A stretch of 64,000 bases of DNA, taken from positions 156,408,817 through 156,472,816 of the forward strand of contig CM061132.1 in assembly GCA_030789695.1 (NCBI GenBank), read 5' to 3'. A program made the position numbers and the translations under genes. This stretch comes from Scilla litardierei. Taxonomy: Eukaryota; Streptophyta; Magnoliopsida; Asparagales; Asparagaceae. Below, one piece after another: positions 34,801-60,119 of this stretch; position 1 is the first letter of the stretch; each line of letters starts with the position of its first letter. The notes beneath the pieces are model-generated. The model was not told the origin of the DNA. It searched no databases and worked only from the letters and a program-made list of their open reading frames with translations.

Positions 34801-34854
34801 GATGAAGTAAACTAGTATTTAAAATACATATATAAAAGCAAACTAAGATAAGAC

Positions 34855-36981: not shown

Positions 36982-36986
36982 ATTTG
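36982..36986 (+). repeat. Target duplication ATTTG of element B
   Basis: ATTTG immediately before the 5' LTR of B is repeated at 43703-43707 immediately after its 3' LTR. Confidence 0.92.
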
Positions 36987-37132
36987 TGTTGTGAACGGTT
37001 ATTTAACCGTAGTTGGGTGAGATTCTAGGCTATCCTAGAGATAGGCCCATATCATTGTAAGCCCATATCTGTATTCCCCAATTGCCTATAAATAAAGAGC
37101 TGGGCTCCTCCCCCAGTAGTTGATTCATAACA
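36987..37132 (+). mobile_element. Element B 5' LTR (146 bp)
   Basis: TGTTGTGAACGGTTATTTAA at the start and TTGATTCATAACA at the end. A TATA-like CCTATAAATAAAG lies at about 37086. Short LTRs are typical of this copia group. Confidence 0.93.
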
Positions 37133-37147
37133 CGTTATCAGCACGAC
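37133..37147 (+). other. Element B primer-binding site (anticodon-arm type)
   Basis: CGTTATCAGCACGAC directly follows the LTR. It lacks the TGG start expected for priming by a tRNA 3' end. Its reverse complement GTCGTGCTGATAACG matches positions 26-40 of plant tRNA-Ile(AAU) as recalled, with G read at wobble position 34 where the gene has A and the mature tRNA has inosine. Confidence 0.7.
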
Positions 37148-37479
37148 TCTAAAAATTTTCTTTTCCACAAAATTTTCTCTATTCGTTGCGAAGGCGAAGG
37201 CTAGACGGGAGATCCACGAGCGCGGTGCAAGGCCTCCTCCATCGAGCGTCGTCATCCGCGTAGGGCTTCGAGCAACCGTCGCTATATCCGGAGGACGGAT
37301 ATAGAGGTAAAAACACTAAAAACGATATTTTTTTTCATTCGTATGATTACCCCTCCCCTAGATCTCGCAAGATCGATATGGGGATTATTTGTCGCCTTGA
37401 AAACGACGGACTTTTCATCCCAAAAACTCAATTTTTAGGGTCAAAACCCTAATTTTTTGAACCCTCCGGCGGATAGCCG

Positions 37480-37690
37480 TCACCGGAAACCCCCCCAACC
37501 TCGACGGAACCCCCCGACCGCTCCCCCCGCGCCGCTCCCCCCTGCAGGGGGGGGCGGCGGCCCCTGCCGTCGCGCCCCCCTGCAAGGGGGGCGGCGGGAT
37601 CGCCACCGCGCCCCCCTGCAGGGGGGGCGGCGGCCCCCGCCGCCGATCCCCCCTTCAGGGGGGCGGCGGCGGCGCCTTCCCCCCAAACCC
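37480..37690 (+). repeat. CCCCCTGCAGGGGGG palindrome array in B leader
   Basis: Four or so units of a CCCCCTGCAGGGGGG-type palindrome spaced by GCGGCGG-rich linkers, within the leader intron. Proline- or glycine-rich open frames on both strands here result from composition. The sequence should form strong hairpins and G-rich structures. Confidence 0.85.
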
Positions 37691-37717
37691 TAAGACAGGG
37701 TTCACAAAAAAAAATTC

Positions 37718-37915
37718 CAGATCTGTGGGCCTGAAGCCCACATCAGATCTGTGGGCTTCAGGCCCACAGAATTAAAAAAAATCCAGATCTGTGGGCCTGA
37801 AGCCCACAGCAGATCTGTGGGCTTCAGGCCCACAGATTTCAAAAAAAAAGAAAGAAAGAAAAGCCTATGGGCCTGAAGCCCATAGGTCGACTGCGGGCTT
37901 CAGGCCCGCAGGCTG
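37718..37915 (+). repeat. GTGGGCCTGAAGCCCAC hairpin array in B leader
   Basis: Units GTGGGCCTGAAGCCCAC and GTGGGCTTCAGGCCCAC alternate in three pairs (37725, 37785 and 37865 regions). Each unit is a short palindrome, and each pair is also an inverted repeat. The last pair has changed to ATGGGC/GCGGGC but keeps stem complementarity. Confidence 0.85.
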
Positions 37916-38857
37916 GTTTATCTGAAAAAAATGGGGGAGGCAAAGGGCTATAAACTCGCCTCAAAAGGTAACTTATTGGCCTAAAAATTAATTTAAAAGG
38001 GGAATTTAAGGGCAAAATATTCGTGAAAAATCACGGTAAATTACGTGACAAATACCGGGCAGGCGAGGACTTTTTGGGGATTCTTGGGGGGGCTTTTGGG
38101 ATGATGAGGGAAACTTTTCCCTCTGACAAAGAAAATGTTTATTTTGGGCTCTTAATCAATTTAATTGATTAAACCCATTTACTTTACAACCTTTGCATTG
38201 TAATGATTTTTTCTACAAAAATCATATTTACATGCTTTGCATCTCTGGTATATTCTGTTGGATATTATATGCGTGGTTGTGCATTGTATTTAAAACTTAA
38301 TAATTAGGAAGATCCTGCGACCGCTCTGCCGTTAGTAACATAACCTAACGGTGTATGACGTTGCCCATTGGTCCAATAATTATTAAGTGTTTAAATTATT
38401 TATCCATCTCTGCGAATATTAAATGCTTGTGATGCCTGTGATGAAAATGTCTGATGAAAATGTTGATGAGCACAATATTTCTGCATGAATTGCTAAATGT
38501 GGTTTTTGGATCGGCCGTTTAGTCCCACAGTTTATTTCCCGCACTTTTCTTTTATTTTTGAGAGAAATTGTAGTGAGGAATTTATGTAAATGTCAAAGAA
38601 AGAAGACCAACTTCCATGGAGACGGAGACCACACTTGAAGATGGAGATATCATATGGGACCCACGGGGTTTCCAAAGTTGTATTTTCATTTTCTTTAAGC
38701 TGCAAATTTGTATAATTTGGACTGTGGACTTTTTTGGAATCTTTCTTGTGGGACTGGCCGATCCACACATTTAGTTTTTCGTTAAATATTACCTCCGCAT
38801 GAAAATGTTTTCTCTGATTAATTATTAATTCATGCATGTTTGTGCTCTGCTAGATAA

Positions 38858-39818
38858 ATGGCTAATATTGCAAGCGTTAATTTCGAAGTACTGGAAGCAT
38901 CAGGTAGAAACTATCTAAGCTGGCAGCTAGATGTAAAGTTTCACATGCGGGCAAAGTCCCTCATCGCTGTTGTGACTGAAAAAGAAAACGTTAGCGATAT
39001 AGAGAAGGCGCAAGCCATCACCAATATTCGCCGCCATGTGGACAAGACCTTAAAGGCTGAATACCTTACGGTCGAAGATCCACTTGAGCTATGGACTGCC
39101 CTTGAGGACAGGTATAAACATCAGAAAGATGTTATACTCCCAAGGGCACGATATGAGTGGGAGAACATGAGACTACATGACTTTAAGTCCATTGCTGAGT
39201 ACAACTCAGCACTTTTTAGCATCACCTCACGCCTGAAGTTGTGTGGTGAGAATGTCTCAGAAGATCGCATGCTGGAAAAGACGTATACGTCCTTCCATGA
39301 AAAAGATGTGATACTCATGTAGCAATATCGTGAACACAGGTTCACCAAGTATTCTGAGCTGCTGTCATGTTTACTCATGGCTAAGCAAAACAGAGAGCTT
39401 CTTCTCGCCACTCACAATATGCGCCCTCCCGGCACTGCCCCCCTACCAGAAGCTCATCATTCCTCTTCCTTCAAAAAGAAGAGAGATATTAAAAGAAAAG
39501 AAAGACCACAGAAGGGGGGGTCAACAGAAAAATGCCAAGGGCCGTGTACAGCAGCAGCGAAATAATGAAAGTAAGCGGAAGTTCACGTGGCACAGAAATA
39601 ACAAAAATGATTCACCCCCACCCAAGAGGGAATGGGAAGACCAGTGCCATAATTATGGCATGGAAAGCCACTGGTCCAAAATGTGCCAAACATCGCAGCA
39701 CCTCCAGGATTTGTATAAAGAGAACAAGAAAAATAAAGCTGAAACAAACCTGATGACCTCTGATGCTCCAGTCAAGTTTTCAGCTGACAACTTCGGAAAT
39801 GATGACTTGCTTGATTAG
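38858..39818 (+). pseudogene. Element B gag
   Basis: Starts MANIASVNFEVLEASGRNYL. The body has ITNIRRHVDKTLKAEYLTVE, LEDRYKHQKDVILPRARYEW and SITSRLKLCGENVSEDRMLE. A TAG at 39320-39322 stands where C, D and A have Gln. The frame resumes through HNMRPPGTAPLPEAHHSSSF, then changes at a seven-G run (near 39514). It ends with a knuckle-like CHNYGMESHWSKMC, in which the second Cys is Tyr, and with DDLLD. Confidence 0.85.
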
Positions 39819-39959
39819 CCTTTATTTTTATCTTAGCAATTTGTTTTGAGAATAATTTATGAGAGCATTTTAATTATGAAATTTGTTCTGAATGAAAATG
39901 TTTAGTAGACAATAAATGAAAATGTTTATCTGAATATTTATGTGCCTAACGATTCATCT

Positions 39960-42900
39960 TTCAATAGATGAAACTGCTCTCATAAATAATTAGTAGACAA
40001 TAAACACGTACGATCTCTTTCAATACAAAGCCCAATATCAGGGCTATATTGAAGATCCAGGGACTGCAACACTGTTGCCCCCAAACGACACAAAAATAAA
40101 GGATGCACTAATCCCTCCGAATTCCAAAAGAGACTTTCTAAGTTTCAAGGACATCCGGTTCAACGGATTCCACTTGGAAACAGCAAATGTAAATGAAAAA
40201 AAAAATTACCGTATGCAACGTCTCAAGAAAAAGGAGTAAAATCCACACTTGAACGTTTTGAGAGCCTTATAGGCCTCCACCATACGAAGACTCGGAGAAA
40301 GGAAGCAGAATTAAACGGAGCACCTGAAGTGCCCGACATCAGCCGAGTTTTTACTCCGGCATGATGGACTTGGCCACCCTGGATTTGTGATGATGCATCG
40401 CACCTTATCCTATGGGTATGACTTGAAGAACCAGAAGATTCTTCAGAAGGAAAAAAATCCCTCGCATCCCTTACTATAAGGGAAAACTAATTGCAAGGCC
40501 ATCTACACGATAAGTTGAAAAAGAATCTCCACGCTTCCTCAAAAAAGAATACAAGGAGATAGATGTGGATAAAATCCACCACCCCTAGTGGGCTATTTCA
40601 GTATTCACTGTACTGATAAATGCATCCTCAGAATATTCGTACGTGTGTCTACTACAGACCCGCAACTTAGCTTTTCCAAAGCTATTGGCACAAAAATAAA
40701 AATGTTGCGGGCACATTTTCCAGACAATAAAATGTTGTAAATAAGTCTGGTTAATGTTGGGAAATATAACTCCCAGTCTTTTCAAGAGTACTGCCAATCA
40801 ACGGGAATTGAAAATGAACATACAAGTGCCGCATGTTCATACCCAAAATGGGTCGGCAGAGTCACTGAAAAGTAGACTCCAATGGACTGAACGTCCATTA
40901 AATCCCGATTGCCTATGGATGCATGGGGACATGCAAACTCTGCATGCTGCATCGTAAATGAAAATAAGACCCTCTAGAGGTCAGAGTCTCCAATGCAATT
41001 TGCATATGGAATGCCACCGAACATTTCTCATCTGAGAATCTTCGGTCGTGCAGTCTTAAATCCCCATTGCACCACCAAAGAGGACCAAAACGGTACTCAA
41101 CGTCGCCTAGGTATCCATGCAGGGTTTGACTCACCCTCACTTATAAGATAGCTAGAACCCCAAACGGGGGACGCATTTAAGGCACATCTTGAAGACTGTG
41201 ATTTCGATGAGACGAGTTTCCCAAAAATATGCCCAGATACTAGAAAATCTGGCGCGAAGAAAATTATAACGTGGGATACAAAAAGTTTGACCCACTATGA
41301 TCCGGTAACAATACAATATGTAGATGAGATCCCGAAGATCCTCCACATACAGAACACTGTCTACCGGAATCATTTATCGACAACCAGAAGATTGTCAGAT
41401 CACACATCCCTGCTGCAAAAACTCCAGCTAGGATTGACATCCCCGAGAATGGATGCAATCCACCAGCAGCAGAAGTGGCTGATCCTCAACAGAAAAGAGG
41501 CAGACCACCAGGCTCCTAGGACAAGAAACTCCTGGAGACCTTAAGACAATACTACCACAGGACAATGAGCTCATGTCCACACCATCACCCTTCCCGGAAT
41601 CCACTACAGAGGAATTGCCGGGAAAAAGTGAAATTAAGTAAATGTTGTACGTACTGGGGAGGTGTTGGACAGATAGAACATAAATTGTCGACAATGTATT
41701 CACGTATCATATTGTCATATACATCGTAATGGCGATGATGTTTATAAATTATTGTTCCACACTCCGTTGCTAGAAGGCAAACGTAGAGATTGGCCAAACG
41801 TGGAACGTGACAATAAAGATGAGCTGGACTCACTTATGAAACGTGAAATGTTCGGACCTGAAGTCCAGACACCAAAAGGTGTCAAACCTGTGGATAAAAC
41901 AAAGTATTGCAAACATAAGAAAAATAAATACAAAATCGTATGCTATATGGTACAACCTATAGCCCAAGGAAAATTTCGCTGAAACTAGGGATCGAACAAA
42001 TTCAAATGAGCATGTCTCATAAATGATGCATCAGTCTCCCTAAGTTATCAAAAGCGAATACCTTACGATTTGGCGAAGGAAAATTTTGGATATGCCGTTA
42101 TTGGATGTTGTGACGGCATACCTTCGTGGATATCTTGTAAAGATAATTTCCACATTTCCTTAAAATGCCTGAATAGACTTCGGGACGTCTATTCAAATGA
42201 AGAAATATAAGTATAACAAATAAATGTACAACCAAGAGAATCACTTGACAAGTCAATGATTCATACTGAAGGTTGTCTTTGCATCTGTGCAAAGAACATG
42301 ATTAGAGATCATAGTTGGAGACAACTAAAATCTCATCGGATCTCCTTAAAAGAAAACCGAACTACATGTACAAGCCTGACCTTTGAACATGAAAAGACCT
42401 AGGCAAATATAAAGTCATGGCTCATAGAATCCTGTTACAAACGCCCAGAAGTGCGTTGGAGAAATTAACAGGACCATAGTCATCCAAAGTACACCTACGG
42501 TGGTACACTTACTGGATGTATAAAAAGAACCCTTCCGATCGCTGGAAGAGGTGGAGGATATAACTGGTCCTAAAGTCCCTTATCTAAGTGCAATCATGCA
42601 CTCCTGGCTAACTGCATGTGTCCCGGTATAGCAATTGCAGTAAACTCATTAGCCAGAGATAGTTGGCACCTAAAAAAGGCCATTAGACCGGAGTTAAGCC
42701 TTCTGCGCTTCCTCCAAGGGTCTAAATATTTGGACTTACAAAATGTAGTAGCATCCTCCAATGTTTATGCGAATGCAGGTTACAGGTCCGGTCCCTATAC
42801 TGAGAAATCACAGAACAGGTACCAACAGTGGGATGACCATCTACTGCAAATATGCAAAGCAACTTATGAAGGCAACATCATCCTATAATTCCGAGATCCT

Positions 42901-42990
42901 CACCATTCCAGAATCACACAAATGGTGTATTTAAGGGCGCCTGGTGGTACATCACATCCCAGTGACGACTGGGATAGAGGCTGGTTCTGT
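39960..42990 (+). pseudogene. Element B pol, degenerate
   Basis: Protease tail (LLPPNDTKIKDAL, DFLSFKDIRFNG), the pre-integrase motif LRHDGLGHPGFVMMHR, the integrase segment LVNVGKYNSQSFQEYC with the catalytic Asp replaced by Val and the following Glu by Lys, then ESPMQFAYGMPPNISHLRIF. The RT start GPEVQTPKGVKPV is followed by a shrunken RT. The RNase H end is AGYRSGPYTEKSQNRYQQWDDH. The YVDD core was not found. The protease Asp region appears deleted. Confidence 0.8.
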
Positions 42991-43175
42991 GGAGCTGACC
43001 ATATAGTCTGAAGACCACATCAGAGGCGACAAAACTTAGCACACCTCTCCAGAGTTTCTGGATTCAGCAGCTGCTTGATGGTGACAAAATTTGTAATCTG
43101 TGTACATTTTCGGAATATTGTAAATAGGAGTGATGAGATAAGCCTAAGAGATCTGAAAGCCTAAGAGCTTTTACA

Positions 43176-43556
43176 GATCAGGGGGAGTTGAGGGAATTTG
43201 TACTCTTTTCCCTTAGTTATGGTTTTTCCCACTGGGTTTTCCATAGCCAAATGTTTTAACGAGGCAAATCAAATCAACTCTGGATCCCGAAGTATCCACC
43301 CCTCTGTGATGCTCAGAATCCAGAAGTATTCATGAGCAGAGTCACTTGTACAAATCAGTGGGAGTTAAAGTGCGTTTGCACTCTTTTTCCTTAACTATGG
43401 TTTTTCCCACTGGGTTTTCCATAGCTAGAGGTTTTAACGAGGCAAATCTCACCAACTCAGGATTCTGAAGTATCCACCCCATGTGAGACTCTTATACGCT
43501 CAGAATCCTGAAGCATTCACGAGCAGAGTCCACACCTATGGCTAGATAAGGGGGAG
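43176..43556 (+). repeat. Element B 3' duplicated module with PPT-like runs
   Basis: Two units (from about 43176 and about 43352), each beginning with ATCAGGGGGAG or ATCAGTGGGAG. Each continues with TTTTTCCCACTGGGTTTTCC and GTTTTAACGAGGCAAATC and closes with a GAAGTATCCACCCC box. The true polypurine tract AAGGGGGAG (43548-43556) adjoins the 3' LTR, so three PPT-like runs are present. Confidence 0.85.
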
Positions 43557-43702
43557 TGTTGTGAACGGTTATTTAACCGTAGTTGGGTGAGATTCTAGGC
43601 TATCCTAGAGATATGCCCATATCATTGTAAGCCCATATCTGTATTCCCCAATTGCCTATAAATAAAGAGCTGGGCTCCTCCCCCAGTAGTTGATTCATAA
43701 CA
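43557..43702 (+). mobile_element. Element B 3' LTR (146 bp)
   Basis: Identical to the 5' LTR except one visible base (GATATGCCC here, GATAGGCCC there). Followed by the ATTTG duplication. Confidence 0.93.
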
Positions 43703-43707
43703 ATTTG

Positions 43708-46014
43708 GGATTTGTTGTAGAGTTGTAGTATTGATTAGTTCATGATAATAGGAGAAAGTTGGCATTTTCATGTCATCTCCTAAGTATTTTGCTAAAGATT
43801 GCATTTTTAGGACAAATCTCTTGTAGTTTTTAATAAAGTTTGTAACTTTATAATAAATTGTTGTGTAGTTCCTTAGAAGTTTCATTTTTAAGAATGTTAA
43901 TGCTAAAGTTGCAAGTTTTTATGTTGGTATACAAAAGGAAATGATGGCATCTTTTAAGTTGCTCTTCCAAGTTGCCACTTTTGCATTATGGAGATTAAAG
44001 GTGGGGCCTTTTTTTAAGCAAAGTTGGGCTTATGCCAAGATTTAGTTTCCTTAGGATATCAAGGTTTTCATCCTTCACTAAGAACCATGCTATGATTACC
44101 AATGTCGCTAATACTTGCATCTTAGGTACTAAAGTTATTAAAAGTTTACATGTTGTAGATTAAGTTTGCCACAATTTGCTAAAGGATGTGTGTAAGTTGG
44201 TAAAATTGCTAAGTTGCCTAAAGCTAATATTTCCCTTCTTAACATATGCTTATGGCGATGAGTTTTCCACTAATTAAAACTTTATTAGCAATGATGCCAT
44301 GATGGAATTAGTGTTAATTAAAATGGTATTAGATTCATGCAATTTCCACTAGCCTTTATAAAGATGGCATGTTAGTGTAGAATTGTTTAAAGTTTCACCT
44401 TTGTACAGACTTTACTTTCATGCAATTCTTATTAATTGACAAATGTACATTTTTAGTGAATTGCTTAACTTGTAACTAAATGTGGGTGTTGTTAAGTAGT
44501 TACAAAATGGGTATTACTTAACCTTGCATTTTATTGGTTGTAATGGTTAATGAGGTTTCTTGGAAAATGGTTCGTGGTGCTAGTGAACCCTAATGATGAT
44601 GTGTTATGTTTGGGAAATGGTTTATGTTGATGGAGGGTGGTGTTGTGGAAATTTGCAAGAGAACCCTATATATATTCCTTTTGTTTAAACATTGCATTTG
44701 GTGGAAGTGGGTTGCTAAAGCAAGTTGTCCTCCATGAAATGGCTAAGTGATTTGGAAATGTGGTTTGTTTTAATAAGGCCAAGTGCCGGTTGGGATAAAG
44801 AATGGAGACGTGATTGTGGTTACTCTATCATTCATGAAACCCGTATGTTGTTACTCATTTCTTAAATTTCAATGCATGTTAAATGTCGCATTCTTCATGA
44901 CGCATGTTTTATGTTCTCATATGTTATCTTAATTCTTCATGTTGAATTGATGGCAAATTTGAATATGCAAGCCATGATTACAACCTAATGTTGTATGTAT
45001 TTAATGTTAGGGTGCTAATAATTGGATAAGTCCTCTTAAAAGAGGGTGACACTGGGATTGGGGGACACTATGTAGTGGGGAACACATGAGGGGCTGGATA
45101 GTTATGGTGGTTGGTGGCCCTCCTATCCTGCCCGAGTGACAAGGAGTGGCGGAAATGTGGAGAATTGGAGAAAATGTGAAGGGGAAATAAGGAAAAAACA
45201 TGGCTCCTTTGTTAACAGCATTGCACACTGGGCCGAGTGCCCAGTTAGCTTGGGGAGTTTGCCTGTGTCACCCCAACTGGGGGTGAGGTCCAGTCCCAAG
45301 AGGGTCTACCCACTACTTAGGGCCCAAACCACTACATGATAACCTTCATTACTTTTTGTAGCATTGGTAAATTTTGTCTACTTGTGTGTTCTTTACTTGC
45401 AGCTCTCTTATGACGTATACCCTTGTTATACCCTTCGTCTGTTGTATTTGTTGTTCCTTCCTTTTATTGGCATGTTGTACTTATGGTTCCTTCCTTTATG
45501 ATTAAAAACAACATTCCCTAAATTAATATTTACATGCACGAGTTGGGATATCCTACTGGGTCACGCTGTGACGTGTCCCCGTTGACTTTTCAGGTGTTGG
45601 CTCTTGGAGTTGGTGACAGAGGTGGAGTTTGGGACTAATGGTCGAGATGTTGATTGTAGGTTTGGATGGAGAGGAGAGAGGAGAGAGACTTGTACATTTG
45701 GGGCTTGCTTTGGGTAGAGGGATGTTTTGCCTATAATGGATGTATAATGGACATTGGTGATGTATAAGGATTATGGTTACTCTTTGGTTTAGTCGTTGTC
45801 TCTGAGTTATTGGGTAGTTTCTATGCTTCTCTCTGTGTTTTTGTGTTGTGTTGTTGGTCCGTATTTTGGACATTACAGGTGCTACCCCAGCAGTGTGCAG
45901 TGGACCTGCAGATTATTGCATTTCTTTTCTTCCTTTCTCCGTAACACTCACTACTCTGGTATCACCTGGGACGGATTCGTACTTCCCGGGTATCCTGGGG
46001 AGCGGGGCGTTACA
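43708..46014 (+). mobile_element. Solo LTR 1, right part
   Basis: Continuation of the gypsy solo LTR after element B. AT-rich, ending GGGGCGTTACA before AAATA. The open frames inside are unsupported. Confidence 0.82.
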
Positions 46015-46019
46015 AAATA

Positions 46020-47678
46020 CAGTCCATGAAGATGAAATACAAAAGAAATAAAAAATACAAATTGGAAACCCATTTTAGGTCCCAGCATATTGCAGATTTC
46101 ATCTACGTCTTCAATTTGGCTGAGCTCCGGTCTTTTAGCATCTTACATTATAACCTCACTACAATTCCTCTCAAAACAGAAAAAGAAAGCGAGAAATGTA
46201 AAAAGGTGTATCAAAATGGCCGATCCCAAATCACAAGACTGAATTATTTATAACATCCACATAGTTTTATATATGCTACAGGCAAATAATAATTTCACAA
46301 CATCACAGACATTTCAAAATTCATCAAACGCAATTTATTAGATAAAAATATTAAATTTACGTTAAAAAGGTTACTTGGACCACGGGGAAACGTCATTACC
46401 CGTTAGGTTAGAAAACTAACTTAACTACAGAGCGGTCTCAGGATCCTCGTAATCATTAAAACGTAAAATAAATTTTTTTAAAAAAATCTAATATTAAATA
46501 AAGCGATAAAAAATGAATTACACATAAAATTCATTAACAAAATTTTATTTTGCGCCAAAAACTCCGAAAGGAGTTAAAATATCATCAACATGATATTCCC
46601 TGATTTTTTCTGGATTTTTCCAGGATTTTCAGGGGGTATTTATTAAAAAATGGGTATTTTATGAATTTAATAATAAATTGGCCTGCAGGCCGGAGGCCCG
46701 CGGGCTGGCTGCGGGCTGCAGGCCCGTTAGCCAAAAAATATACCCAGTTTTTATGTTCAATTTTTGTTAATTACTAGGCTTCTGATCCATCAGGTGAGGC
46801 CCATGCCCCTTCTCCCCCAAACCCTAATTAGAGTTTTAAAGTGAAAAACAGCCGCCAGGGGAGTCAAAAAGACTTTTCCATTTCCCCTTCCTCTACAAAC
46901 GCTACAGGCAGACATATATATTGATATAATAATGATAAATGATGTGCATTTAAATGATAGCCCCTCTCGCAAAAATAATACGCGAGCCATTACCACTCAT
47001 CACATCCCGTTTACTGCCTGAAGGATCATGCTCATGCCGGTCCCTCACAATTCCTTTTTATAGCCAGCGCTTCCCATTCCTTTTCTCTTGCTAACCAATG
47101 TGGGACTATAAAAAATCCCCATAAGTCTCACATTAGTTAATTAGATTTTAATCTGACCCAAAAACTCACAGACCAATTAATCTAAGATTCACAATCATTG
47201 GCACAATAGTAACTCGTATAAAAGGTGAGCATAATGATACAAGTGTTTGATGTGCCAATGCGTCTACCTCTTCTCGGTAGTATTTTCGGCATTGCTGTAG
47301 TTCTCAATGGAGTGCAAGTTTTGTAATGATCATTGCTGATTTTTTCCTTTTTAAGTATTGATGTTTGTATCTCTTGACAAATATCGTGGTCCGTGGAAAT
47401 TAAAAAGGAATGGTGAGGTGTAAATTGGGAGGTTATAGAATGATGTCCATAATCAGGCTAGGCCTAAAAGTGTACTAGTGTGAAGCTGATGCAAGGGAGC
47501 AATCAAAACTTCAAACTCAAGAACACGTTGAGCATGTATAAAGCTGATGCAAGGGTTGCGAAATGATCGGCCCCTCCCCCTCCCACCAGGGGATCGGAGC
47601 TACATGAGGCCCCACCCCCCGTCAAGGGGCGTTGCGAATCGAGGTGCCCCCCGACAGGGGGGCGGCCAGGCTGGAGCC
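46020..47678 (-). mobile_element. Element A leader, middle segment
   Basis: Resumes A after solo LTR 1. It matches C's leader in the order CCTCACTACAATT, GGCCGATC, a GACCAC..CAACGTCAT-type block, CAGAGCGGTC and a CCTGCAGGCCGGAGGCCCG hairpin area near 46680-46730. From about 46800 it diverges from C. A GC-rich stretch near 47565-47675 (CCCCCCGACAGGGGGG-like) corresponds to the palindrome array of B and C. Confidence 0.7.
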
Positions 47679-49696: not shown

Positions 49697-49816
49697 GAGC
49701 CCCCTCCTGACTGGGGAGGGGCGGCGCGGAGACGAGCCCCCTCCCGACTGGGGGGGCACCGACGAAGAGCCTCCCCCCACGATTGGGGGGGGCAGGGAAA
49801 GAGCCCCAAAAAATTG

Positions 49817-49821
49817 TGTTT
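49817..49821 (+). repeat. Target duplication TGTTT of element C
   Basis: TGTTT at 49817-49821 is repeated at 56760-56764. Confidence 0.88.
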
Positions 49822-49970
49822 TGTTATGAATCAACTACTGGGGGAGGAGCCCCCAGCTCTTTATTTATAGGCAATTGGGGGAATATAGATATGGGCTTAC
49901 AGTGATATGGGCCTATCTCTAGGATAGCCCAGAATCTCACCCAACTACGGTTAAATAACCGTTCACAACA
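49822..49970 (-). mobile_element. Element C 3' LTR
   Basis: 149 bp, TGTTATGAATCAACTACT on the plus strand through AACCGTTCACAACA. Followed by the purine tract (minus-strand TAAGGGGGAG) at 49971-49980. Confidence 0.92.
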
Positions 49971-50365
49971 CTCCCCCTTATCCAGCCATAGGTGTGGACT
50001 CTGCTCGTGAATGCTTCAGGATTCTGAGCGTATAAGAGTCTCACATGGGGTGGATACTTCAGGATCCTGAGTTGGTGAGATTTGCCTCGTTAAAACATCT
50101 AGCTATGGAAAACCCAGTGGGAAAAACCATAGTTAAGGAAAAAGAGTGCAAACGCTCTTTAACTCCCCCTGATTTGTACAAGTGACTCTGCTCATGAATA
50201 CTTCTGGATTCTGAGCGTCACAGAGGGGTGGATACTTCGGGATCCAGAGTTGATTTGATTTGCCTCGTTAAAACCTTTGGCTATGGAAAACCCAGTGGGA
50301 AAAACCATAGCTAAGGGAAAAGAGTACAAATTCCCTCAACTCCCCCTGATCTGTAAAAGCTCTTA
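49971..50365 (-). repeat. Element C 3' duplicated module with PPT-like runs
   Basis: Same two-unit structure as in B. AACTCCCCCTGAT occurs on the plus strand at about 50160 and 50338, and AACCCAGTGGGAAAAACC occurs twice. Confidence 0.83.
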
Positions 50366-50589
50366 GGCTTACAGATCTCTTAGGCTTATCTCATCACTCC
50401 TATTTACAATATTCCGAAAATGTACACAGATTACAAATTTTGTCACCATCAAGCAGCTGCTGAATCCAGAAACTCTGGAGAGGTGTGCTAAGTTTCGTCG
50501 CCTCTGATGTGGTCTTCAGACTATATGGTCAGCTCCACAGAACCAGCCTCTATCCCAGTCGTCACTGGGATGTGATGTACCACCAGGCG

Positions 50590-53540
50590 CCCTTAAATAT
50601 ACCATTGGTGTGATTCTGGAATGGTGAGGATCTCGGAATTATAGGATGATGTCGCCTTCATAAATTGCTTTGCAGATCTGCAGGGGATGACCATCCCACT
50701 GTGGGTACCCGTGATTTCTCAGCATAGAGACTGGACCTGAAACCTGCATTTGCATGAACATTGGAGGATGATACTTCATTTTGTAAGCCCGAATCTTTTG
50801 ACCCTTGGAGGAAGAGCAGAAGGCTTAACTCCGGTCTAATGGCCCTTTTTAGGTGCCAACTATCTCTGGCTAATGAGTTCACTGCAATTGCTATACCGGG
50901 ACACATGCAGTTAGCCAGGAGTGCATGATTGCACTTAGATAAGGGACTTTAGGACCAGTTATATCCTCCCCCTCTTCCAGCGATCGGAAGGGTTCTTTTT
51001 ATTCATCCAGTAAGTGTACCGCCGTAGGTGTACTTTAGATGACAATGGTCCTTTTAATTTCTCCAACGCACTTCTGGGCGTTTGTAACAGGATTCTATGA
51101 GCCATGACTTTATATTTGCCTAGGTCTTTTTATTTCATGTTTAAAAGTCAGGCTTGTTCATGTAGTTCGGTTTTCTCTTCAGGAGATCCGATGAGATTTT
51201 AGTTGTCTACAACTATGATCTCTAATCCTGTTCTTTGCACAGATGCAAAGACAACCTTCAGTAGGAATTATTGACTTGTCAAATGATTCTCTTGGTTGTA
51301 CATTTATTTGTTATACTTATTGTTTTTCTTCATTTGAATAGACGTTCCGAAGTCTATTCAGGCATTTTAAGGAAATGTGGAAATTATCTTTACCAGATAT
51401 CCACGAAAGTATGCTGTCACAACATCCAATAACAACATATCCATAATTTTCCTTTGCCAAATCGTGAGGTATTCGCTTTTGATAACTTAGGGAGATTGAT
51501 GCATCATTTATGAGACATGCTCATTTGAGTTTGTTCGATCCCTAGTTTCAGCGAAATTGTCCTCGGGCTATAAGTTGTACCTTATAGCATACGATTTTGT
51601 ATTTATTTTTCTTATGTGTGCAATACTTTGTTTTATCCACAGGTTTGACACCTTTTTGGTGTCAGGACTTCAGGTCCGAACATTTCACGTTTCATAAGTG
51701 AGTCCAGCTCATCTTCTATTGCCACGTTCCACATTTTGGCCAATCTCTACGTTTGCCTTCTAGCAACGGAGTGTGGAACGATAATTTACAAACATCATCA
51801 CCATTGCGATGTATATGGCAATATGATACGTGAATACATTGTCGACAATTTATGTTCTATCTGTCCAACACCTCCCCAGTACGTACAACATTTACTTAAT
51901 TTCACTTTTTCCCGGCAATTCCTCTGCAGTGGATTCCGGGAAGGGTGATGGTGTGGACAAGAGCTCATTGTCCTGTGGTAGTATTGTCTTAAGGTCTCCA
52001 GGAGTTTCTTGTCCTAGGAGCCTGGTGGTCTGCCTATTTTCTGTTGAGGATCAGCCACTTCTGCTGCTGGTGGATTGCATCCATTCTTGAGGATGTCAAT
52101 CCTAGCTGGAGTTTTTGCAGCAGTGATGTGTGATCTGACAATCTTCTGGTTGTCAATAAATGATTCCGATAATTGGTAGACAGTGTTCTGTATGTGGAGG
52201 ATCTTCGGGATCTCATCTACACATTGTATTGTTACCGGATCATAGTGGGTCAAACTTTTTGTATCCCACGTTATAATATTCTTCGCGCCAGATTTTCTAG
52301 TATCTGGGCCTATTTTTGGGAAACTCGTCTCATCGAAATCACAGTCTTCAAGATGTGCCTTAAATGCGTCCCCCGTTTGGGGTTCTAGGTATCTTATAAG
52401 TGAGGGTGAGTCAAACCCTGCATGGATACCTAGGCGACGTTGAGTACCGTTTTGGTCCTCTTTGGTGGTGCAATGGGGATTTAAGACTGCGCGACCGAAG
52501 ATTCTCAGATGAGAAATGTTCGGTGGCATTCCATATGCAAATTGCATTGGAGACTCTGACCTCCAGAGGGTCTTATTTTCATTTACGATGTAGCATGCAG
52601 AGTTTGCATGTCCCCATGCATCAATATGCAATCGGGATTTAATGGACGTTCAATCCATTGGAGTCTACTTTTCAGTGACTCAACCGACCCATTTTGGGTA
52701 TGAACATGCGGCACTTGTATGTTCATTTTCTATTCCCGCTGCTTGGCAGTACTCTTGAATTGACTGGGAGGTGTATTTCCCAACATTAACCAGACTTATT
52801 TTCTGTATTTTATTGTCTGGGAAATGTGCCCGCAACATTTTTATTCTTGTGCCAATAGCTTTGGAAAAGCTAAGTTGCGGGTCTTGTAGTAGACACACGT
52901 ACGAATATTCTGAGGATGCATTTATCAGTACAGTGAAGTACTGAAATAGCCCACTAGGGATGGTGGATTTTATCCACATCTATCTCCTTGTATTCTTTTT
53001 TGAGGAAGCGTGGAGATTCTTTTTCAACTTATCGTGTAGATGGCCTTGCAATTAGTTTTCCCTTATAGTAAGGGGTGCGAGGGATTTTTTTCCCTTCTGA
53101 AGAATCTTCTGGTTCTTCAAGTCATACACATAGGATAAGATGCGATGCATCATCACAAATCCAGGGTGGCCAAGTCCATCATGCCGGAGTAAAAACTCGG
53201 CTGATGTCGGGCACTTCAGGTGCTCCGTTTAATTCTGCTTCCTTTCTCCGAATCTTCGTATGGTGGAGGCCTATAAGGCTCTCAAAACGTTCAAGTTTGG
53301 ATTTTATTCCTTTTTCTTGAGACGTTGCATACGGTAATTTTTTTTTTCATTTACATTTGCTGTTTCCAAGTGGAATCCGTTGAACCGGATGTCCTTTAAA
53401 CTTAGAAAGTCTCTTTTGGAATTCGGAGGGATTAGTGCATCCTTTATTTTTGTGTCGTTTAGGGGCAACAGTGTTGCAGTCCCTGGATCTTCAATATAGC
53501 CCTGATATTGGGCTTTGTATTGAAAGAGATCGTACGTGTT
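50590..53540 (-). pseudogene. Element C pol, degenerate
   Basis: Longest intact piece 52631-52014 (205 codons): ESPMQFAYGMPPNISHLRIF, RRLGIHAGFDSPSLIRYLEP and IVRSHITAAKTPARID, i.e. the C-terminal integrase region. Integrase core at 52979-52680 has LVNVGKYTSQSIQEYC, the same Asp to Val and Glu to Lys changes as B. The RNase H tail (CPGIAIAVNSLARDSWHLKR) lies near 50906-50658. RT is shortened as in B. Confidence 0.8.
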
Positions 53541-53724
53541 TATTGTCTACTAATTATTTATGAGAGCAGTTTCATCTATTGAAAGATGAATCGTTAGGCA
53601 CATGAATATTCAGATAAACATTTTCATTTATTGTCTACTAAACATTTTCATTCAGAACAAATTTCATAATTAAAATGCTCTCATAAATTATTCTCAAAAC
53701 AAATTGCTAAGATAAAAATAAAGG

Positions 53725-54686
53725 CTAATCAAGCAAGTCATCATTTCCGAAGTTGTCAGCTGAAAACTTGACTGGAGCATCAGAGGTCATCAGGTTTGTT
53801 TCAGCTTTATTTTTCTTGTTCTCTTTATACAAATCCTGGAGGTGCTGCGAAGTTCGGCACATTTTGGACCAGTGGCTTTTCATGCCACAATTATGGCACT
53901 GGTCTTCCCATTCCCTCTTGGGTGGGGGTGAATCATTTTTGTTATTTCTGTGCCACGTGAACTTCCGCTTACTTTCATTATTTCGCTGCTGCTGTACACG
54001 GCCCTTGGCATTTTTCTGTTGACCCCCCCCTTCTGTGGTCTTTCTTTTCTTTTATTATCTCTCTTCTTTTTGAAGGAAGAGGAATGATGAGCTTCTGGTA
54101 GGGGGGCAGTGCCGGGAGGGCGCATATTGTGAGTGGCGAGAAGAAGCTCTCTGTTTTACTCAGCCATAAGTAAACATGACAGCAGCTCAGAATACTTGGT
54201 GAACCTGTGTTCACGGTATTGCTGCATGAGTATCACATCTTTTTCATGGAAGGACGTATACGTCTTTTCCAGCATGCGATCTTCTGAGACATTCTCACCA
54301 CACAACTTCAGGCGTGAGGTGATGCTAAAAAGTGCTGAGTTGTACTCAGCAATGGACTTAAAGTCCTGTAGTCTCATGTTCTCCCACTCATATCGTGCCC
54401 TTGGGAGTATAACATCTTTCTGATGTTTATACCTGTCCTCAAGGGCAGTCCATAGCTCAAGTGGATCTTTGACCGTAAGGTATTCAGCCTTTAAGGTCTT
54501 GTCCACATGTCGGCGAATATAGATGATGGCTTGCGCCATCTCTATATCGCTAACATTTTCTTTTTCAGTCACAGCAGCGATGAGGGACTTTGCCCGTAGG
54601 TGAAACTTTACATCTAGCTGCCAGCTTAGATAGTTTCTACCTGATGCTTCCAGTACTTCGAAATTAATGCTTGCAATATTAGCCAT
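53725..54686 (-). pseudogene. Element C gag
   Basis: Open for 176 codons from 54686 (MANIASINFEVLEASGRNYL) to a TAA at 54156-54158, where relatives have a Gln codon (C to T). It then continues through HNMRPPGTAPLPEAHHSSSF and an eight-G run frameshift, and ends with DDLLD at 53725. The body is otherwise better kept than pol. Confidence 0.85.
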
Positions 54687-55627
54687 TTATCTAGCAGAGC
54701 ACAAACATGCATGAATTAATAATTAATCAGGGAAAACATTTTCATGCGGAGGCAATATTTAACGAAAAACTAAATGTGTGGATCGGCCAGTCCCACAAGA
54801 AAGAGTCCAAAAGTACACAGTCCAAATTATACAAATTTGCAGCTTTAAAAATGAAAATACAACTTTGGAAACCCTGTGGGTCCCATATGATATCTCCATC
54901 TTCAAGCGTGGCCTCCGTCTCCATGGAAGTTGGTCTTCTTTCTTTGACATTTACATAAATTCCTCACTACAATTTCTCTCAGAAATAAAAGAAAAGTGTG
55001 GGAAATAAACTGTGGGACTAAACGGCCGATCCTAAAACCACATTTAGCAATTCATGCAGAAATATTGTGCTCATCAACATTTTCATCAGACATTTTCATC
55101 ACAGGCATCGCATGCATTTAATATTCGCAGAGATGGATAAATAATTTAAACACTTAATAATTATTGGACCACTGGGCAACGTCATACACCATTAGGTTAG
55201 GTTACTAACGGCAGAGCGGTCGCAGGATCTTCCTAATTATTAAGTTTTAAATACAATGCACAACCACGCATATAATATCCAACAGAATATACCAGAGATG
55301 CAAAGCATGTAAATATGATTTTTGCAGAAAAAATCATTACAATGCAAAGGTTGTAAAGTAAATGGGTTTAATCAATTAAATTGATTAAGAGCCCAAAATA
55401 AACATTTTCTTTGTCAGAGGAAAAAGTTTTCCTCATCATCCCAAAAGCCCCCCCCCAAGAATCCCCAAAAAGTCCTCGCCTGCCCGGTATTTGTCCCGTA
55501 ATTTACCGTGATTTTTCACGAATATTTTTCCCTTAAACCCCCCTTTTAAATTAATTTTTAGGCTAGCAAGTTGCCTTTTAAGGCTTGTTAATAGCCTTTG
55601 CTTCCACCATTTTTTTTTCAGATAAAA

Positions 55628-55832
55628 CAGCCCGCGGGTCTGAAAACCCGCAGTCGGCCTATGGGCTTCAGGCCCATAGACTTTTTTTTATAATAAAGAA
55701 AAATCGGCCTGTGGGCCTGAAGCCCACAGCCGGCCTGTGGGCTTCAGGCCCACAGGCTTTTTTTTGAAGAAATAATTGGCATGTGGGCCTGAAGCCCACA
55801 GGCCGGCATGTGGGCTTCAGGCCCACAGGCTT
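55628..55832 (-). repeat. Hairpin array in C leader
   Basis: Alternating GTGGGCCTGAAGCCCAC and GTGGGCTTCAGGCCCAC units in pairs separated by T- or A-rich spacers, as in B. The distal pair is changed to CGCGGGTCTGAAAACCCGC while still palindromic. Confidence 0.85.
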
Positions 55833-55884
55833 TATCAGTTTTTTTTTGTTTTTTTTGAATCACATGTTAGGGTTTTTGGGGGGG

Positions 55885-56240
55885 CCGGTGCCGCCGCCGC
55901 CCCCTGCAGGGGGGGCGCGGCCGCCGGGGCCGTCGCCCCCTGCAGGGGGGCGAGGCCGCGGAGGCCGCCCCCCTGCAGGGGGGAGCGGCTGGGGCCGCCC
56001 CCGCAGGGGGGCGCGGCCTCGGGGGCCGCCGCCCCCTGCAGGAGGGGCGATGGGGGCCGCCCCACTGCAGGGGGAGGCGGCCACGGGGGCCGCCACCCCC
56101 TGCAGGGGCGGCGGGGGGGGGGGGGGGGGGGGGGGGCGCCCCCCTGCAGGGGGAGGCGGCCGCGGGGGCCGCCCCCCTGCAGGGGGAGGCAGCCAAGGTG
56201 GGGGGGGTTCTGGCGAGGGGGGGTTCCGGCGAGGGGGGGG
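55885..56240 (-). repeat. CCCCCTGCAGGGGGG palindrome array in C leader
   Basis: About nine units of a CCCCCTGCAGGGGG palindrome at roughly 30-40 bp spacing with GGCCGCGGGGGCCGC-type linkers, plus a G-run of more than 20 near 56113. The open frames on both strands are artefacts. Confidence 0.88.
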
Positions 56241-56596
56241 GGGGGGTTTCCGGCGACGGCTAGCCGCCGGAGAGATCAAAATTAGGGTTTTGGCCCTAAA
56301 AATTGAGTTTTTGGGATGAAAAGTCCGTCGTTTTCAAGGCGACAAATAATCCCCATATCGATCTTGCGAGATCTAGGGGAGGGGTAATCATACGTATGAT
56401 TAAAAATATCGTTTTTAGTGTTTTTACCTCTATATCCGTCCTCCGGATATAGCGACGGTTGCTCGAAGCCCTACGCGGATGACGACCCTTGATGGAGGAA
56501 GCCTTGCACCGCGCTCGTGGATCTCCCGTCTCGCCTTCGCCTTCGCCTTCGCAACGAACGGAAAGAAAATTTTGTGGAAAAGAAAAAAATTTTAGA

Positions 56597-56611
56597 GTCG
56601 TGCTGATAACG
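56597..56611 (-). other. Element C primer-binding site (anticodon-arm type)
   Basis: Minus strand CGTTATCAGCACGAC directly after the 5' LTR. The same 15 bases as B, again with C at the position facing the tRNA wobble base. Confidence 0.7.
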
Positions 56612-56759
56612 TGTTATGAATCAACTACTGGAGGAGGAGCCCCAGCTCTTTATTTATAGGCAATTGGGGGAATACAGATATGAGCTTACAATGATATGGG
56701 CCTATCTCTAGGATAGCCCAGAATCTCACCCAACTACGGTTAAATAACCGTTCACAACA
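56612..56759 (-). mobile_element. Element C 5' LTR
   Basis: 148 bp. On the minus strand it starts TGTTGTGAACGG and ends TTGATTCATAACA. A TATA-like CCTATAAATAAAG is present. Confidence 0.92.
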
Positions 56760-56764
56760 TGTTT

Positions 56765-57147
56765 TTGTTTTTTGTTTTTTGTTATATATTGTTCTAATAC
56801 AGTAAAAACAATTGTAAATATATTTCCCTACTTGCAATGATCTGGAGATTGAATTGCAAATGTTTCTCACCTCAATTAACGAGGTGTATGTTCTTGATTT
56901 GTGGCAAAAATGTATGAAATATTTTTGCATAATCTATCTCGATGGGATAAGTAATTTTACCTCTAGATCAATGATCTAGGGAAGATTGATAAAGATCCAT
57001 AGAAAAGAAGAAGAAAATTCCCCGCTCCCGTAACGCCTTGCAGGTTCGTCGCAACTTTGTCGCAACAAACAAGATTCCTTCGCAAGAGGGAAATTTTGTG
57101 GGGATAAAAGGAGAAGCTCAAGAACGAGAGCTAAAGTGCTGATAACG
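56765..57147 (-). mobile_element. Element A leader, 5' segment with PBS
   Basis: Minus strand: PBS CGTTATCAGCAC at 57147-57136 right after the LTR, then a GCGAAGG-containing leader exon to GATCTAGAG (56961), then the donor GTAAAATTAC. The PBS matches the B/C/D version for 12 bases and then diverges. Confidence 0.78.
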
Positions 57148-57323
57148 TGTTAGAAAATCAAAAGAATGAGTAACCATAACACAAAGCCGTGGTTCTCTAT
57201 TTATTCATAATAGTAGAATATGAAAGGACATGTGATACCAAAGGTCCCCATTAGTAAGCTTGATGGGGATTAATGGGGGGGATAAAGATGAGGGGAAGCC
57301 AAAGGCCTCCTTCATTCATAACA
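57148..57323 (-). mobile_element. Element A 5' LTR (176 bp)
   Basis: Minus strand TGTTATGAATGAAGGAGG to TGATTTTCTAACA. Its partner at 31470-31644 shares most positions. TGTCC at 57324-57328 is the right target duplication. Confidence 0.87.
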
Positions 57324-57647
57324 TGTCCTTTTTTCCCCGAGTATCAGATCAATTCATTTTGATGTTCATATTCTAAATATTCAAAACACCGGATTTCGAT
57401 TAAAACCAAAGGGTTTCACCCTTTTAACCCTCATCACAAAAGTTCTATTCATGTAAACCCGTTAAATTTGCGACGTGTAGATGAATGGGTAAAACCCATT
57501 GTGTTCATATCATATTTAGTATTTTGGGGTTTCAAAATATGTAGGCCAAAATGAACAGTTTTGATCCCCGGAAAAATAGCCGTGGTTGAAGTTTTGGAAG
57601 CCACATTCGAGGCTTAGCCTCTCATGTCATATGATATCCATTTTTTC
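57324..57647. other. Unassigned sequence right of element A
   Basis: After the TGTCC duplication the sequence is AT-rich with no recognised element. This is the original insertion site of A. Confidence 0.35.
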
Positions 57648-58105
57648 ACAAAATTAAAAATAATTACAAAAATCGAATAAAATTTAAAAATATTTACCAA
57701 AATCGACCAACGTACCATGTTATGCCAAGGGGTGATTCCGCGCTGAGGTGGCGAAGTTTCAATTTGGCATGGGTTGATTTGGCCGAGTTGCCTACCCCAG
57801 CCAAATCGAGGTAATGAGCATAAGATGTGATTGTTTGGCCAAGAAGCTAAAAGATGAATGTAATGTCATATGAAAGAAGGGCTTGAATTGATTTTGATTA
57901 ATAATTTTTAAAGATTTGAACGGCTGCCAGAGTTCCCAATTCTATCTCCCGCATTGACCTCGATTTGGCAGGAGTTGGCAACTCTGGTCAAATCAGAACT
58001 CTGTCACTCGGTGCGGAATAACCACTGGCGTGCTAAAATGGAAAAAGTTGGTTGATTTTTGTAGTTATTTTTAACTTTTGGCTTTTTTTCAAATATTTGT
58101 CCTTT
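57648..58105. mobile_element. MITE-like inverted repeat, about 450 bp
   Basis: Arms: TAAAAATAATTACAAAAATCG and GATTCCGCGCTGAGGTGGCG through AGCCAAATCGAGGT on the left. CCTCGATTTGGCAGGAGTTG through CACTCGGTGCGGAATAACCA and GATTTTTGTAGTTATTTTTA on the right. Pairing is imperfect but long. Confidence 0.6.
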
Positions 58106-58712
58106 CCACAATTTTTATTAAACTACATAATATTTTAAAACTTTTAATTTATTACCGGACCTTTTGCATTGACTAACAACACAAACAGTCACATGTTTTT
58201 TGATAAAAATATCCTTTCATTCATACCTTCTGATCTTCTACATGTTCAAAGCCTCGTCATCACTTATAATCATCATCTTTCTGGTCATTATTGACTCCTC
58301 TATCTGTTTCCTTCCCAAATTGTAAGTGTAGTGTTTGATCTAATTCTTTGAAAGTGAAGTTTACCCCGTTCCATCAAATTAAATCCCCTAATTTTAAAAA
58401 GTTATTAGATTTCATCTCTTATTCATGTTAAAGGTAACAAGAGCAAAAATAGCCAAAGTTTCATCATGTGATGTGCACACTTTTTTTGGTTGCCAACTCA
58501 TGATGAGTAGAAATGAAATTAGTCCAAACATTAAGGTATTTAGTTGGAAGGTTTTAACCATTAAGTATTTTATTGAAAATGGGACGAAACATTAATCTAT
58601 TTCGATGTAATATCACATATATTGCTTTTTAAACTTTTGATTAGGTTTTGTGAAGGGAGAAAATGGAAAAATTCGGATTGTTAAATTTAATTTTTGGTTA
58701 ATGATGGGAGTT
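58106..58712. other. Unassigned AT-rich sequence
   Basis: No gene or element was recognised before the LTR of element D. Confidence 0.35.
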
Positions 58713-58838
58713 TGTATTGGGGATTACATCCTATTCATAAGATAAGATCATATCTATTGTACCTCTATCCATATACGTTCTTCCCTCTATTATAAATAAA
58801 TGACTGAGGTCTCCCCCCAGGTTTGATGCTTCACAACA
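58713..58838 (+). mobile_element. Element D 5' LTR (about 126 bp)
   Basis: Ends GATGCTTCACAACA directly before the PBS. The start is taken at TGTATTGGGGATTACATC but is not confirmed by a second LTR. A TATA-like TATTATAAATAAATG lies near 58789. Confidence 0.7.
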
Positions 58839-58852
58839 CGTTATCAGCACGA
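58839..58852 (+). other. Element D primer-binding site (anticodon-arm type)
   Basis: CGTTATCAGCACGA, identical to B and C for 14 bases although the adjoining LTR has diverged strongly. Conservation across different LTRs supports function. Confidence 0.7.
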
Positions 58853-58997
58853 GCCTCCACAAACCCAGATCGTTGCGAAAGCGAAGGAAAGGCGATAGAT
58901 CCATGCGCGTAGCTTCGTCTACTACCAACTGGCGTCGTTTTCCACGCGTAGGCTTCGTCAACCATCGCTAGATCTGGAGGACGGATCTAGAGATAAA

Positions 58998-59956
58998 ATG
59001 GCAAAAATCGCAAGCGTTGATTTCAAAGTGCTGGATGCATTAGGCATGAATTACTTGAGCTGTCAGCTCGATGTTAAATTTCACCTGTGGACTAAGTCCC
59101 TCATTTCTGCGGTGACAAAAGATGGAAAGGCGACTGACATTGAAAAGACGCAAGCCATTATTTATATTCGTCGTCATGTGGACAAGACCCTAAAGACTGA
59201 ATACCTTATGGTCGAAGATCCACTTGAGCTGTGGACTACCCTTGAGGAAAGATATAAACATCAGAAAGATATTATACTTCCAAGGGCACGATATGAGTGG
59301 GAGAACCTGAGACTGCAGGACTTTAAGTCCATAGCTGAGTACAACTCAGCTCTATTTAGTATCACCTCACGCTTGAAGTTGTGTGGTGAAAAGGTCTTAG
59401 AAGATCGCATGCTGGAAAAGACGTACACGTCTTTCCACAAAGAGGATGCGATACTAATGCAGCAATACGGTGAACGAAAGTTCACCAAGTATTCTTAGCT
59501 GCTGTCATGTTTACTCATGGCTGAACAAAACATGGAGCTTCTCATCGCCACTCATAATATACGCCCCTCGGCATTGCCCCCCTCTCAGAAGCTCACAATG
59601 CATCTTCTTTTAAAAAGAAGAAAGATAATAAAAGGAAGGGAAAATCACAGAAAGGGGGACCAAATAAAAAGGACAGGGGACAAGTCCACCCGAATAGAAA
59701 TGAAGGGAGGCGGAAGCTCACTTGGCGCATGAATGACAATAACAGAAAAGATGCACCCCCACCTCAAAGAGAATGGAAGACTAGTGCCATAGCTTGGCAT
59801 GAAAGTACACTGGTCTAGAATATGCAGAACTCCGCGACACCTACAAGATTTGTACAAAAAAGCTTGAAGAAAAAAGCTGAAATAAATCTGGTGACCACAA
59901 ATGCTCCAGTTTAGTTCATAGCTGACGACTTCGAAAGAGACGACTTGCTTTATTAG
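58998..59956 (+). pseudogene. Element D gag
   Basis: Starts MAKIASVDFKVLDALGMNYL, continues IIYIRRHVDKTLKTEYLMVE and LEERYKHQKDIILPRARYEW. A TAG at 59496-59498 follows KFTKYS where relatives have Glu. The frame goes on through the basic region (five-G run here, no shift), but later stops break the knuckle area. It ends DDLLY. The leader joins ATCTAGAG to ATAAAATGG with no intron. Confidence 0.85.
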
Positions 59957-60119
59957 CTGTTTTTATCTTTGCTTTGAACAATAATGTTATGAGAGCTGTT
60001 TGACTGATTGAATGAAGTATGAATAAATGAAAATGTTTTTCTGAAATAAAATGTGCTTATATGATTCATCTTTTAATAGATGAACTGCTCTCATGACTGA
60101 TTAGTAGACAGTAACACAT

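What the first reader, a model, noticed from the sequence alone, without database searches (positions are those of the whole stretch)
37133..58852. Copia family primed by the anticodon arm of tRNA-Ile, with an inosine footprint in the PBS
Seen: directly after the 5' LTR of B (37133), C (56611, minus), D (58839) and A (57147, minus) stands CGTTATCAGCAC, extended to CGTTATCAGCACGA in B, C and D. It lacks the TGG start of sites that pair with a tRNA 3' CCA end. Known, recalled without a search: plant tRNA-Ile(AAU) has an anticodon arm reading UCGUGCUAAUAACG, whose A34 is deaminated to inosine. The reverse complement of the PBS is TCGTGCTGATAACG. It agrees at every position except wobble 34, where it has G, which is how inosine is read. 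Known: Drosophila copia and yeast Ty5 use half-tRNA(iMet) primers cut in the anticodon stem. Inference: this family uses a 5' half of mature tRNA-Ile(IAU). Its PBS is regenerated by copying the edited tRNA, so it records A-to-I editing. I do not know of this primer being described for plants.
Basis: partly seen in the sequence, partly recalled or inferred. Interest (0 to 1): 0.9.

Follow-up and report, generated by a model that had tools for sequence, protein, structure and literature searches.

The report
Plant Copia elements primed by half-tRNA
These plant jumping genes carry a docking site for half of an edited isoleucine tRNA, a primer already described for the Bianca lineage; the new point is a sister family whose site fits the unedited tRNA gene instead.

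Summary
In detail: four LTR elements (A-D) carry CGTTATCAGCAC directly after the 5' LTR. The primer reading also holds: host tRNA-Ile(AAT) genes match the reverse complement of the 14-base site at 13 of 14 positions, missing only wobble 34. But it is not new. Neumann et al. 2019 (PMC6317226, passages read) report that Bianca-lineage Copia elements have a PBS complementary to edited half-tRNA-Ile and name the A-to-I change. I file A-D as likely new members of that kind; a reverse-transcriptase tree against Bianca references could not be made.

Two results go further. Two CCA-tailed, 5'-truncated copies of mature tRNA-Ile in the host genome read G at position 34, an inosine readout independent of these elements. 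And LTR-anchored sites are 7623 C to 283 T, yet one old subfamily is 50 T to 8 C. T was therefore passed on there, so rewriting of the site from edited tRNA is not universal. In passing: the published ice-plant 'miRNA' mcr-miR6 is antisense to such an LTR/PBS junction.

The parts
37133..37146 (+). PBS of element B, CGTTATCAGCACGA, facing tRNA-Ile positions 40 to 27
   Evidence: tRNA match
56598..56611 (-). PBS of element C, CGTTATCAGCACGA
57136..57147 (-). PBS of element A, 12 bases CGTTATCAGCAC
58839..58852 (+). PBS of element D, CGTTATCAGCACGA
36987..43702 (+). Element B with both LTRs (36987-37132, 43557-43702; 99.3% identical), TSD ATTTG; inserted inside A; coding broken
49822..56759 (-). 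Element C with both LTRs (56612-56759, 49822-49970; 96.6%), TSD AAACA; inserted inside A, opposite to B; coding broken
31471..57325 (-). Element A, oldest, LTRs 57148-57325 and 31471-31644 (91.4%), TSD GGACA/GGACG; split by C and B; gag remnant 35145-35795
58684..64000 (+). Element D, 5' LTR about 58684-58838 (start not confirmed by a second LTR), gag 58899-59495, then gag_pre-integrase, rve and SH3-like pieces; runs off the window
38858..39319 (+). gag piece of B (Retrotran_gag_2, PF14223)

Best explanation
A-D are Bianca-type Ty1/copia retrotransposons. Minus-strand synthesis is most likely primed by the 5' half of nuclear tRNA-Ile(AAU), cut after G40 in the anticodon stem, whose bases 27-40 pair with the 14-base PBS. 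In the common form, C in the PBS faces inosine 34. Copying of the primer into plus-strand DNA, halting at or just before the modified G26, can rewrite the PBS and write C opposite I34. Rewriting is not universal: one subfamily kept T, the letter that fits the unedited tRNA. Shown here: the anatomy, the match to host tRNA genes, the C and T counts, and that two tRNA-Ile retrocopies read G at 34. Inferred: use of the half-tRNA as primer, the cut site, the halt at G26 and the copying step. The primer type and its inosine explanation were published before.
For: LTR-PBS anatomy, 4 of 4 elements. Host: 28 matches to the tRNA arm with the wobble letter left free, 26 A and 2 G; all 11 A-type loci fetched (of 26) are tRNA-Ile(aat) genes by ARAGORN. 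The PBS complement matches the tRNA at 13 of 14 in the anticodon arm and at most 8 of 14 elsewhere. Both G-type sequences carry a 3' CCA and lack the 5' part; none of the 11 A-type loci has CCA after the gene. 7623 C to 283 T. The base opposite G26 varies (B C, C C, D G; L005-L012: T, C, G, G, T, C, T, T), so the shared match ends at T27. Gag, INT and RT-side pieces in Copia order. Published for Bianca.
Against: No RNA or particle data: the primer itself was not seen. The T subfamily (50 of 58) does not fit rewriting in every cycle. A's PBS matches only 12 bases. Bianca is reported to have two ORFs, while the only intact relative found here, L004, has one ORF of 1306 aa. Letters A and G at the wobble site were not counted with the LTR anchor, and the mutation control count did not complete.
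Confidence: 0.8

Rival explanations
1. The C is held by selection for pairing with inosine (I:C being the best pair), and the PBS is inherited from the element's own RNA; the primer is not copied into progeny. The letter then reflects fit to the edited tRNA and is no footprint.
For: T can persist as the main state of a subfamily (50 of 58), which inheritance from element RNA explains simply. Modelled duplex: C with a G-like 34 is -22.4, C with A -16.0 kcal/mol (G stands in for I).
Against: The shared match ends at T27 with a free base opposite G26, as expected of a copy that halts at a modified base (the modification is recalled). Reverse transcriptases in this genome did copy tRNA-Ile as far as G26, twice. 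Primer copying is the general rule for LTR elements (recalled).
Confidence: 0.3
2. The T copies are only decay of C by methylated-cytosine deamination at the CAG site.
For: T is 283 of 7906 C+T sites overall. Of the 12 T loci fetched, 6 are outside the T family; 5 of these resemble by eye C-type families of L008-L010 and L034 is unplaced.
Against: Within one subfamily T is 50 of 58 with the rest of the PBS intact and lies on nearly all branches of its tree. Two T pairs share their flanks and count once each, leaving 24 T to 4 C among the 30 of 58 loci fetched. The direct control, the count of CAG to CAA, did not complete.
Confidence: 0.08
3. The primer is another tRNA, or a tRNA-Ile gene that already encodes G34.
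For: Two host sequences carry the arm with GAT.
Against: Both lack the 5' half of a tRNA and carry a CCA tail; ARAGORN finds no gene in L014 (L025 was not run). No site with the TGG start of a 3'-end PBS adjoins these LTRs. Other tRNAs of the host were not scanned here.
Confidence: 0.04

Closest known systems
Bianca lineage of plant Ty1/copia (Neumann et al. 2019, PMC6317226; passages read)
   Same: PBS complementary to half-tRNA-Ile edited from A to I at the first anticodon base; Copia gene order; 5-bp TSD, as in 93.4% of the elements in that survey.
   Different: The passages read mention no T-type subfamily and no rewriting of the PBS. The two ORFs about 172 bp apart reported for Bianca could not be checked in the broken copies here.
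Osser, Bryco and part of Gymco-II Copia elements (half-tRNA-Met), and Drosophila copia and yeast Ty5 (recalled from the finding and memory)
   Same: Priming by a tRNA half cut in the anticodon stem.
   Different: They use tRNA-Met, with no inosine at the wobble position.
miR845 against the tRNA-Met PBS (PMC8824631, passages)
   Same: A small RNA antisense to a PBS, like ice-plant mcr-miR6.
   Different: mcr-miR6 matches the half-tRNA-Ile type PBS plus the LTR end; no function has been tested.

Membership tests
Bianca (Ty1/copia) | PBS complementary to edited half-tRNA-Ile | tested here: met
   13 of 14 bases to host tRNA-Ile(AAT), mismatch only at 34; C in 4 of 4 window elements
Bianca (Ty1/copia) | Copia domain order gag - INT - RT | tested here: met
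   Pfam gag, gag_pre-integrase, rve and SH3 pieces; pieces of the L004 ORF (gag to RVT_2) match B, C, D and A in order; no Pfam RT hit in the window pieces themselves
Bianca (Ty1/copia) | Placement of RT/INT/RH with Bianca references | not testable with these tools
   No labelled Bianca reference sequence was available; supplements could not be read
Bianca (Ty1/copia) | Two ORFs about 172 bp apart | tested here: inconclusive
   A-D are broken into short frames; the intact relative L004 has one 1306-aa ORF
Half-tRNA-primed Copia elements | PBS complementary to an internal anticodon-arm stretch directly after the LTR | tested here: met
Half-tRNA-primed Copia elements | tRNA half joined to minus-strand cDNA | not testable with these tools
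   Needs particle or small-RNA data

The most novel reading that the evidence does not exclude
The PBS letter facing wobble 34 is a heritable two-state mark: C-type lineages are primed by inosine-containing tRNA-Ile halves, while a T-type subfamily is, or was, primed by unedited A34 tRNA-Ile halves and so keeps T. One genome would then hold sister families that sample the edited and unedited pools of the same tRNA.
Probability: 0.25. Interest if true: 0.65.

Novelty: new member of a known kind. Interest (0 to 1): 0.45.

Why it matters
It backs a published but brief remark with independent evidence from one genome: the genes say A, two retrocopies of mature tRNA say G, and thousands of primer sites say C. 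The T-type subfamily is a natural contrast for asking whether a half-tRNA primer is really copied into the next generation's primer site, and from which tRNA pool (edited or not) the primer is drawn.

Tried and rejected
Viral contigs held no match to the LTR-anchored PBS or to the tRNA arm, and no confirmed relative of a D protein piece. The scan of genome contigs gave 4 contigs: L004 encodes a Copia relative; L001-L003 were not tested for coding and look like chance matches in bacterial records. Of the papers that print the PBS letters or their complement (21, of which 20 listed), I opened only the ice-plant one; the two papers found for the tRNA arm look unrelated by title and were not opened. 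PMC5659011 (passages) treats TGTT and AACA elements of the Ale lineage and PMC3852365 (passages) elements with a tRNA-Met PBS; both were set aside. A G34-encoding tRNA gene as primer was considered and rejected. A test for excess T-to-C change at the wobble site in the T subfamily was not significant: 11 of 189 T-majority columns are as high. Dating T copies by their LTR pairs failed: no 3' LTR was found in the four 9.5-kb stretches L071-L074. A gag search in the 3-kb loci hit 0 of 8 C-type, 5 of 12 T-type and 2 of 30 T-family loci, because most end before gag. The control count for AACACGTTATCAACACGA did not complete.
Full report
What is there. Four Copia-type elements lie in the right half of the window. 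A (minus strand, 57325 to 31471) is the oldest: LTRs 91.4% identical, target-site duplication GGACA/GGACG. C (minus, 56759-49822; LTRs 96.6%, TSD AAACA) and B (plus, 36987-43702; LTRs 99.3%, TSD ATTTG) both sit inside A, in opposite orientations. D begins near 58684 and runs off the window. Each has CGTTATCAGCAC directly after an LTR ending in AACA. The LTRs of A, B/C and D do not match each other at BLASTN E 1e-3, so the shared 12-mer is not simply shared LTR sequence.

Which tRNA. The window's genome (3.68 Gb) holds 28 matches to GTCGTGCTNATAACGCGAAGG, 26 with A and 2 with G at N. Twelve of the 28 came as loci: all 11 A-type loci are tRNA-Ile(aat) genes by ARAGORN, and in the one G-type locus (L014) no gene is found. 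The other 15 A-type places were not examined. Along the tRNA-Ile gene of L015 plus CCA, the reverse complement of the PBS matches 13 of 14 bases at canonical positions 27 to 40 (numbering recalled) and at most 8 of 14 elsewhere (an earlier run, used a slice off by one base). The one mismatch is the wobble base: A in the gene, G implied by the PBS. Other tRNAs of the host were not scanned.

An independent inosine readout. The two G-type sequences (L014, and L025 fetched) begin at G26, lack the 5' part of the tRNA, and end in GGGCCACCA, with the CCA that none of the 11 A-type genes encodes. Read from the other strand, each follows an LTR-like end and starts TGGTGGCCCATGCAGG, the complement of the tRNA 3' end. 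I read them as tRNA-Ile primers of other elements copied by a reverse transcriptase as far as a modified G26 (that eukaryotic G26 is dimethylated and halts reverse transcription is recalled). Both report G at 34. These are two cases only, but they show the edit in DNA without any of the elements under study.

Already in print. Neumann et al. 2019 (PMC6317226; [quoted passage not shown] They name Bianca as the group using 1/2tRNA-Ile. The main claim of the finding is therefore known. That copying the primer rewrites the PBS is not in the passages I read, and no title or abstract start in the listings pointed to it; I opened only five of the listed papers, and those for passages.

The wobble letter in the wider family. 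With the LTR end as anchor, AACACGTTATCAGCACGA occurs 3876+3747 = 7623 times and AACACGTTATTAGCACGA 154+129 = 283 times; A and G were not counted. Twelve of the 283 T loci were fetched: 6 share one family (TCCAAACA before the PBS), 5 others resemble by eye the C-type families of L008-L010, and L034 is unplaced. That T family, counted with the letter free (TCCAAACACGTTATNAGCACGAAGCTC), has 58 copies: 50 T, 8 C, no A or G. Thirty of the 58 were fetched (26 T, 4 C). On a quick tree without the wobble column the 4 C copies need four changes, as in shuffles (mean 3.8), so they are not a clade; few branches are firmly supported. Two T pairs share their flanks and are each one duplicated insertion, which leaves 24 T to 4 C. 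Of four long stretches fetched, L071 and L072 (one duplicated insertion) show gag, INT, RT and later pol pieces in Copia order, and L073 and L074 (likewise) show gag and INT. So T was passed on through transposition in a diverged subfamily. The C copies within it are not clearly commoner than ordinary transitions (11 of 189 T-majority columns reach 4/30). The control I wanted, the count of CAG to CAA, did not complete.

What this means for mechanism. If each cycle overwrote the PBS from I34 tRNA, T should not persist. Either the T subfamily used unedited A34 tRNA-Ile, or its PBS was inherited from element RNA and not overwritten. For the C-type majority, rewriting and selection for I:C pairing both fit. 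The shared match ends at T27 and the base opposite G26 varies (C in B, C, L006, L010; G in D, L007, L008; T in L005, L009, L011, L012), which fits a copy that halts at a modified G26 and mildly favours rewriting; A's site is shorter still. The modelled duplex is -22.4 kcal/mol for C with a G-like 34 and -16.0 for C with A, while T pairs about equally with A (-20.1) and G (-20.2) (G for inosine is an approximation).

Breadth. L004, a 6376-base contig filed under an uncultured Trichormus MAG, has the same PBS after TATAACA, a 1306-aa ORF with gag, gag_pre-integrase, rve and RVT_2 domains, and 58.5% identity to the D piece over 94 aa. Trichormus azollae lives in the fern Azolla (recalled), so this may be fern DNA; that was not tested. 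A search with the D piece found 107 proteins of 110 candidates, a few of them named from Tanacetum, Cucumis, Malus and Paulownia.

A small RNA against this PBS. The ice-plant 'novel miRNA' mcr-miR6, TTCGTGCTGATAACGTGTTGAA (22 nt; PMC4977306, passages), is the exact antisense of TTCAACA plus CGTTATCAGCACGAA, that is, of an LTR end and a C-type PBS. The main text of that paper does not use the word retrotransposon. By analogy with miR845, which targets the tRNA-Met PBS (PMC8824631, passages), it may be a silencing RNA aimed at half-tRNA-Ile-primed elements; this is inference.

Verdict. The primer and the inosine reading are supported and already published for Bianca. A permanently rewritten footprint holds at most for the C-type majority. 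The new points are the T-dominant subfamily, the tRNA retrocopies and the mcr-miR6 match.

Noticed in passing
PMC4977306 (ice plant), compared with the LTR/PBS junction at window 37126-37147: The published novel miRNA mcr-miR6 (22 nt) is the exact antisense of an LTR end TTCAACA plus the C-type half-tRNA-Ile PBS, so it is probably a small RNA against such elements, like miR845 for the tRNA-Met PBS.
   Followed up: partly
37500-37920 and 55647-56240: The leaders of B and C carry arrays of GC-rich palindromes (CCCCTGCAGGGG and GGGCCTGAAGCCC types); 37700-37920 folds at -141.9 kcal/mol, z -17.9. In the best 220-base stretch, 8 of 13 elements read fold below -120 (B, C, L005, L008-L012); D, L006, L007, L004 and the 388 bases of A do not.
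   Followed up: partly
36987-43702 and 49822-56759: B and C lie in opposite orientation inside A and form a long inverted repeat (arms of 95-99% in pieces). Their interiors are 97.0% identical over 4819 aligned bases with 12 indels, and both lack long ORFs although B's LTRs differ at only 1 of 146 bases: broken copies probably moved with help from elsewhere.
   Followed up: partly
43703-49821: 6.1 kb between C and B inside A, without terminal repeats found or Pfam matches in the three pieces tried; it puts A's gag about 7.7 kb from its PBS, so another insertion or a very long leader may be there.
   Followed up: partly
17839-19467: Broken reverse transcriptase of the RVT_1 type, probably a LINE remnant.
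   Followed up: no
L014, L025 (longer: L026, L027): CCA-tailed tRNA-Ile copies truncated at G26 and joined to LTR-like ends, probably cDNA ends that kept a copied tRNA-Ile primer.
   Followed up: partly
L004: A contig binned as Trichormus holds an intact plant-type Copia polyprotein ORF, with direct repeats 4.9 kb apart: probably host plant DNA in a bacterial bin.
   Followed up: partly
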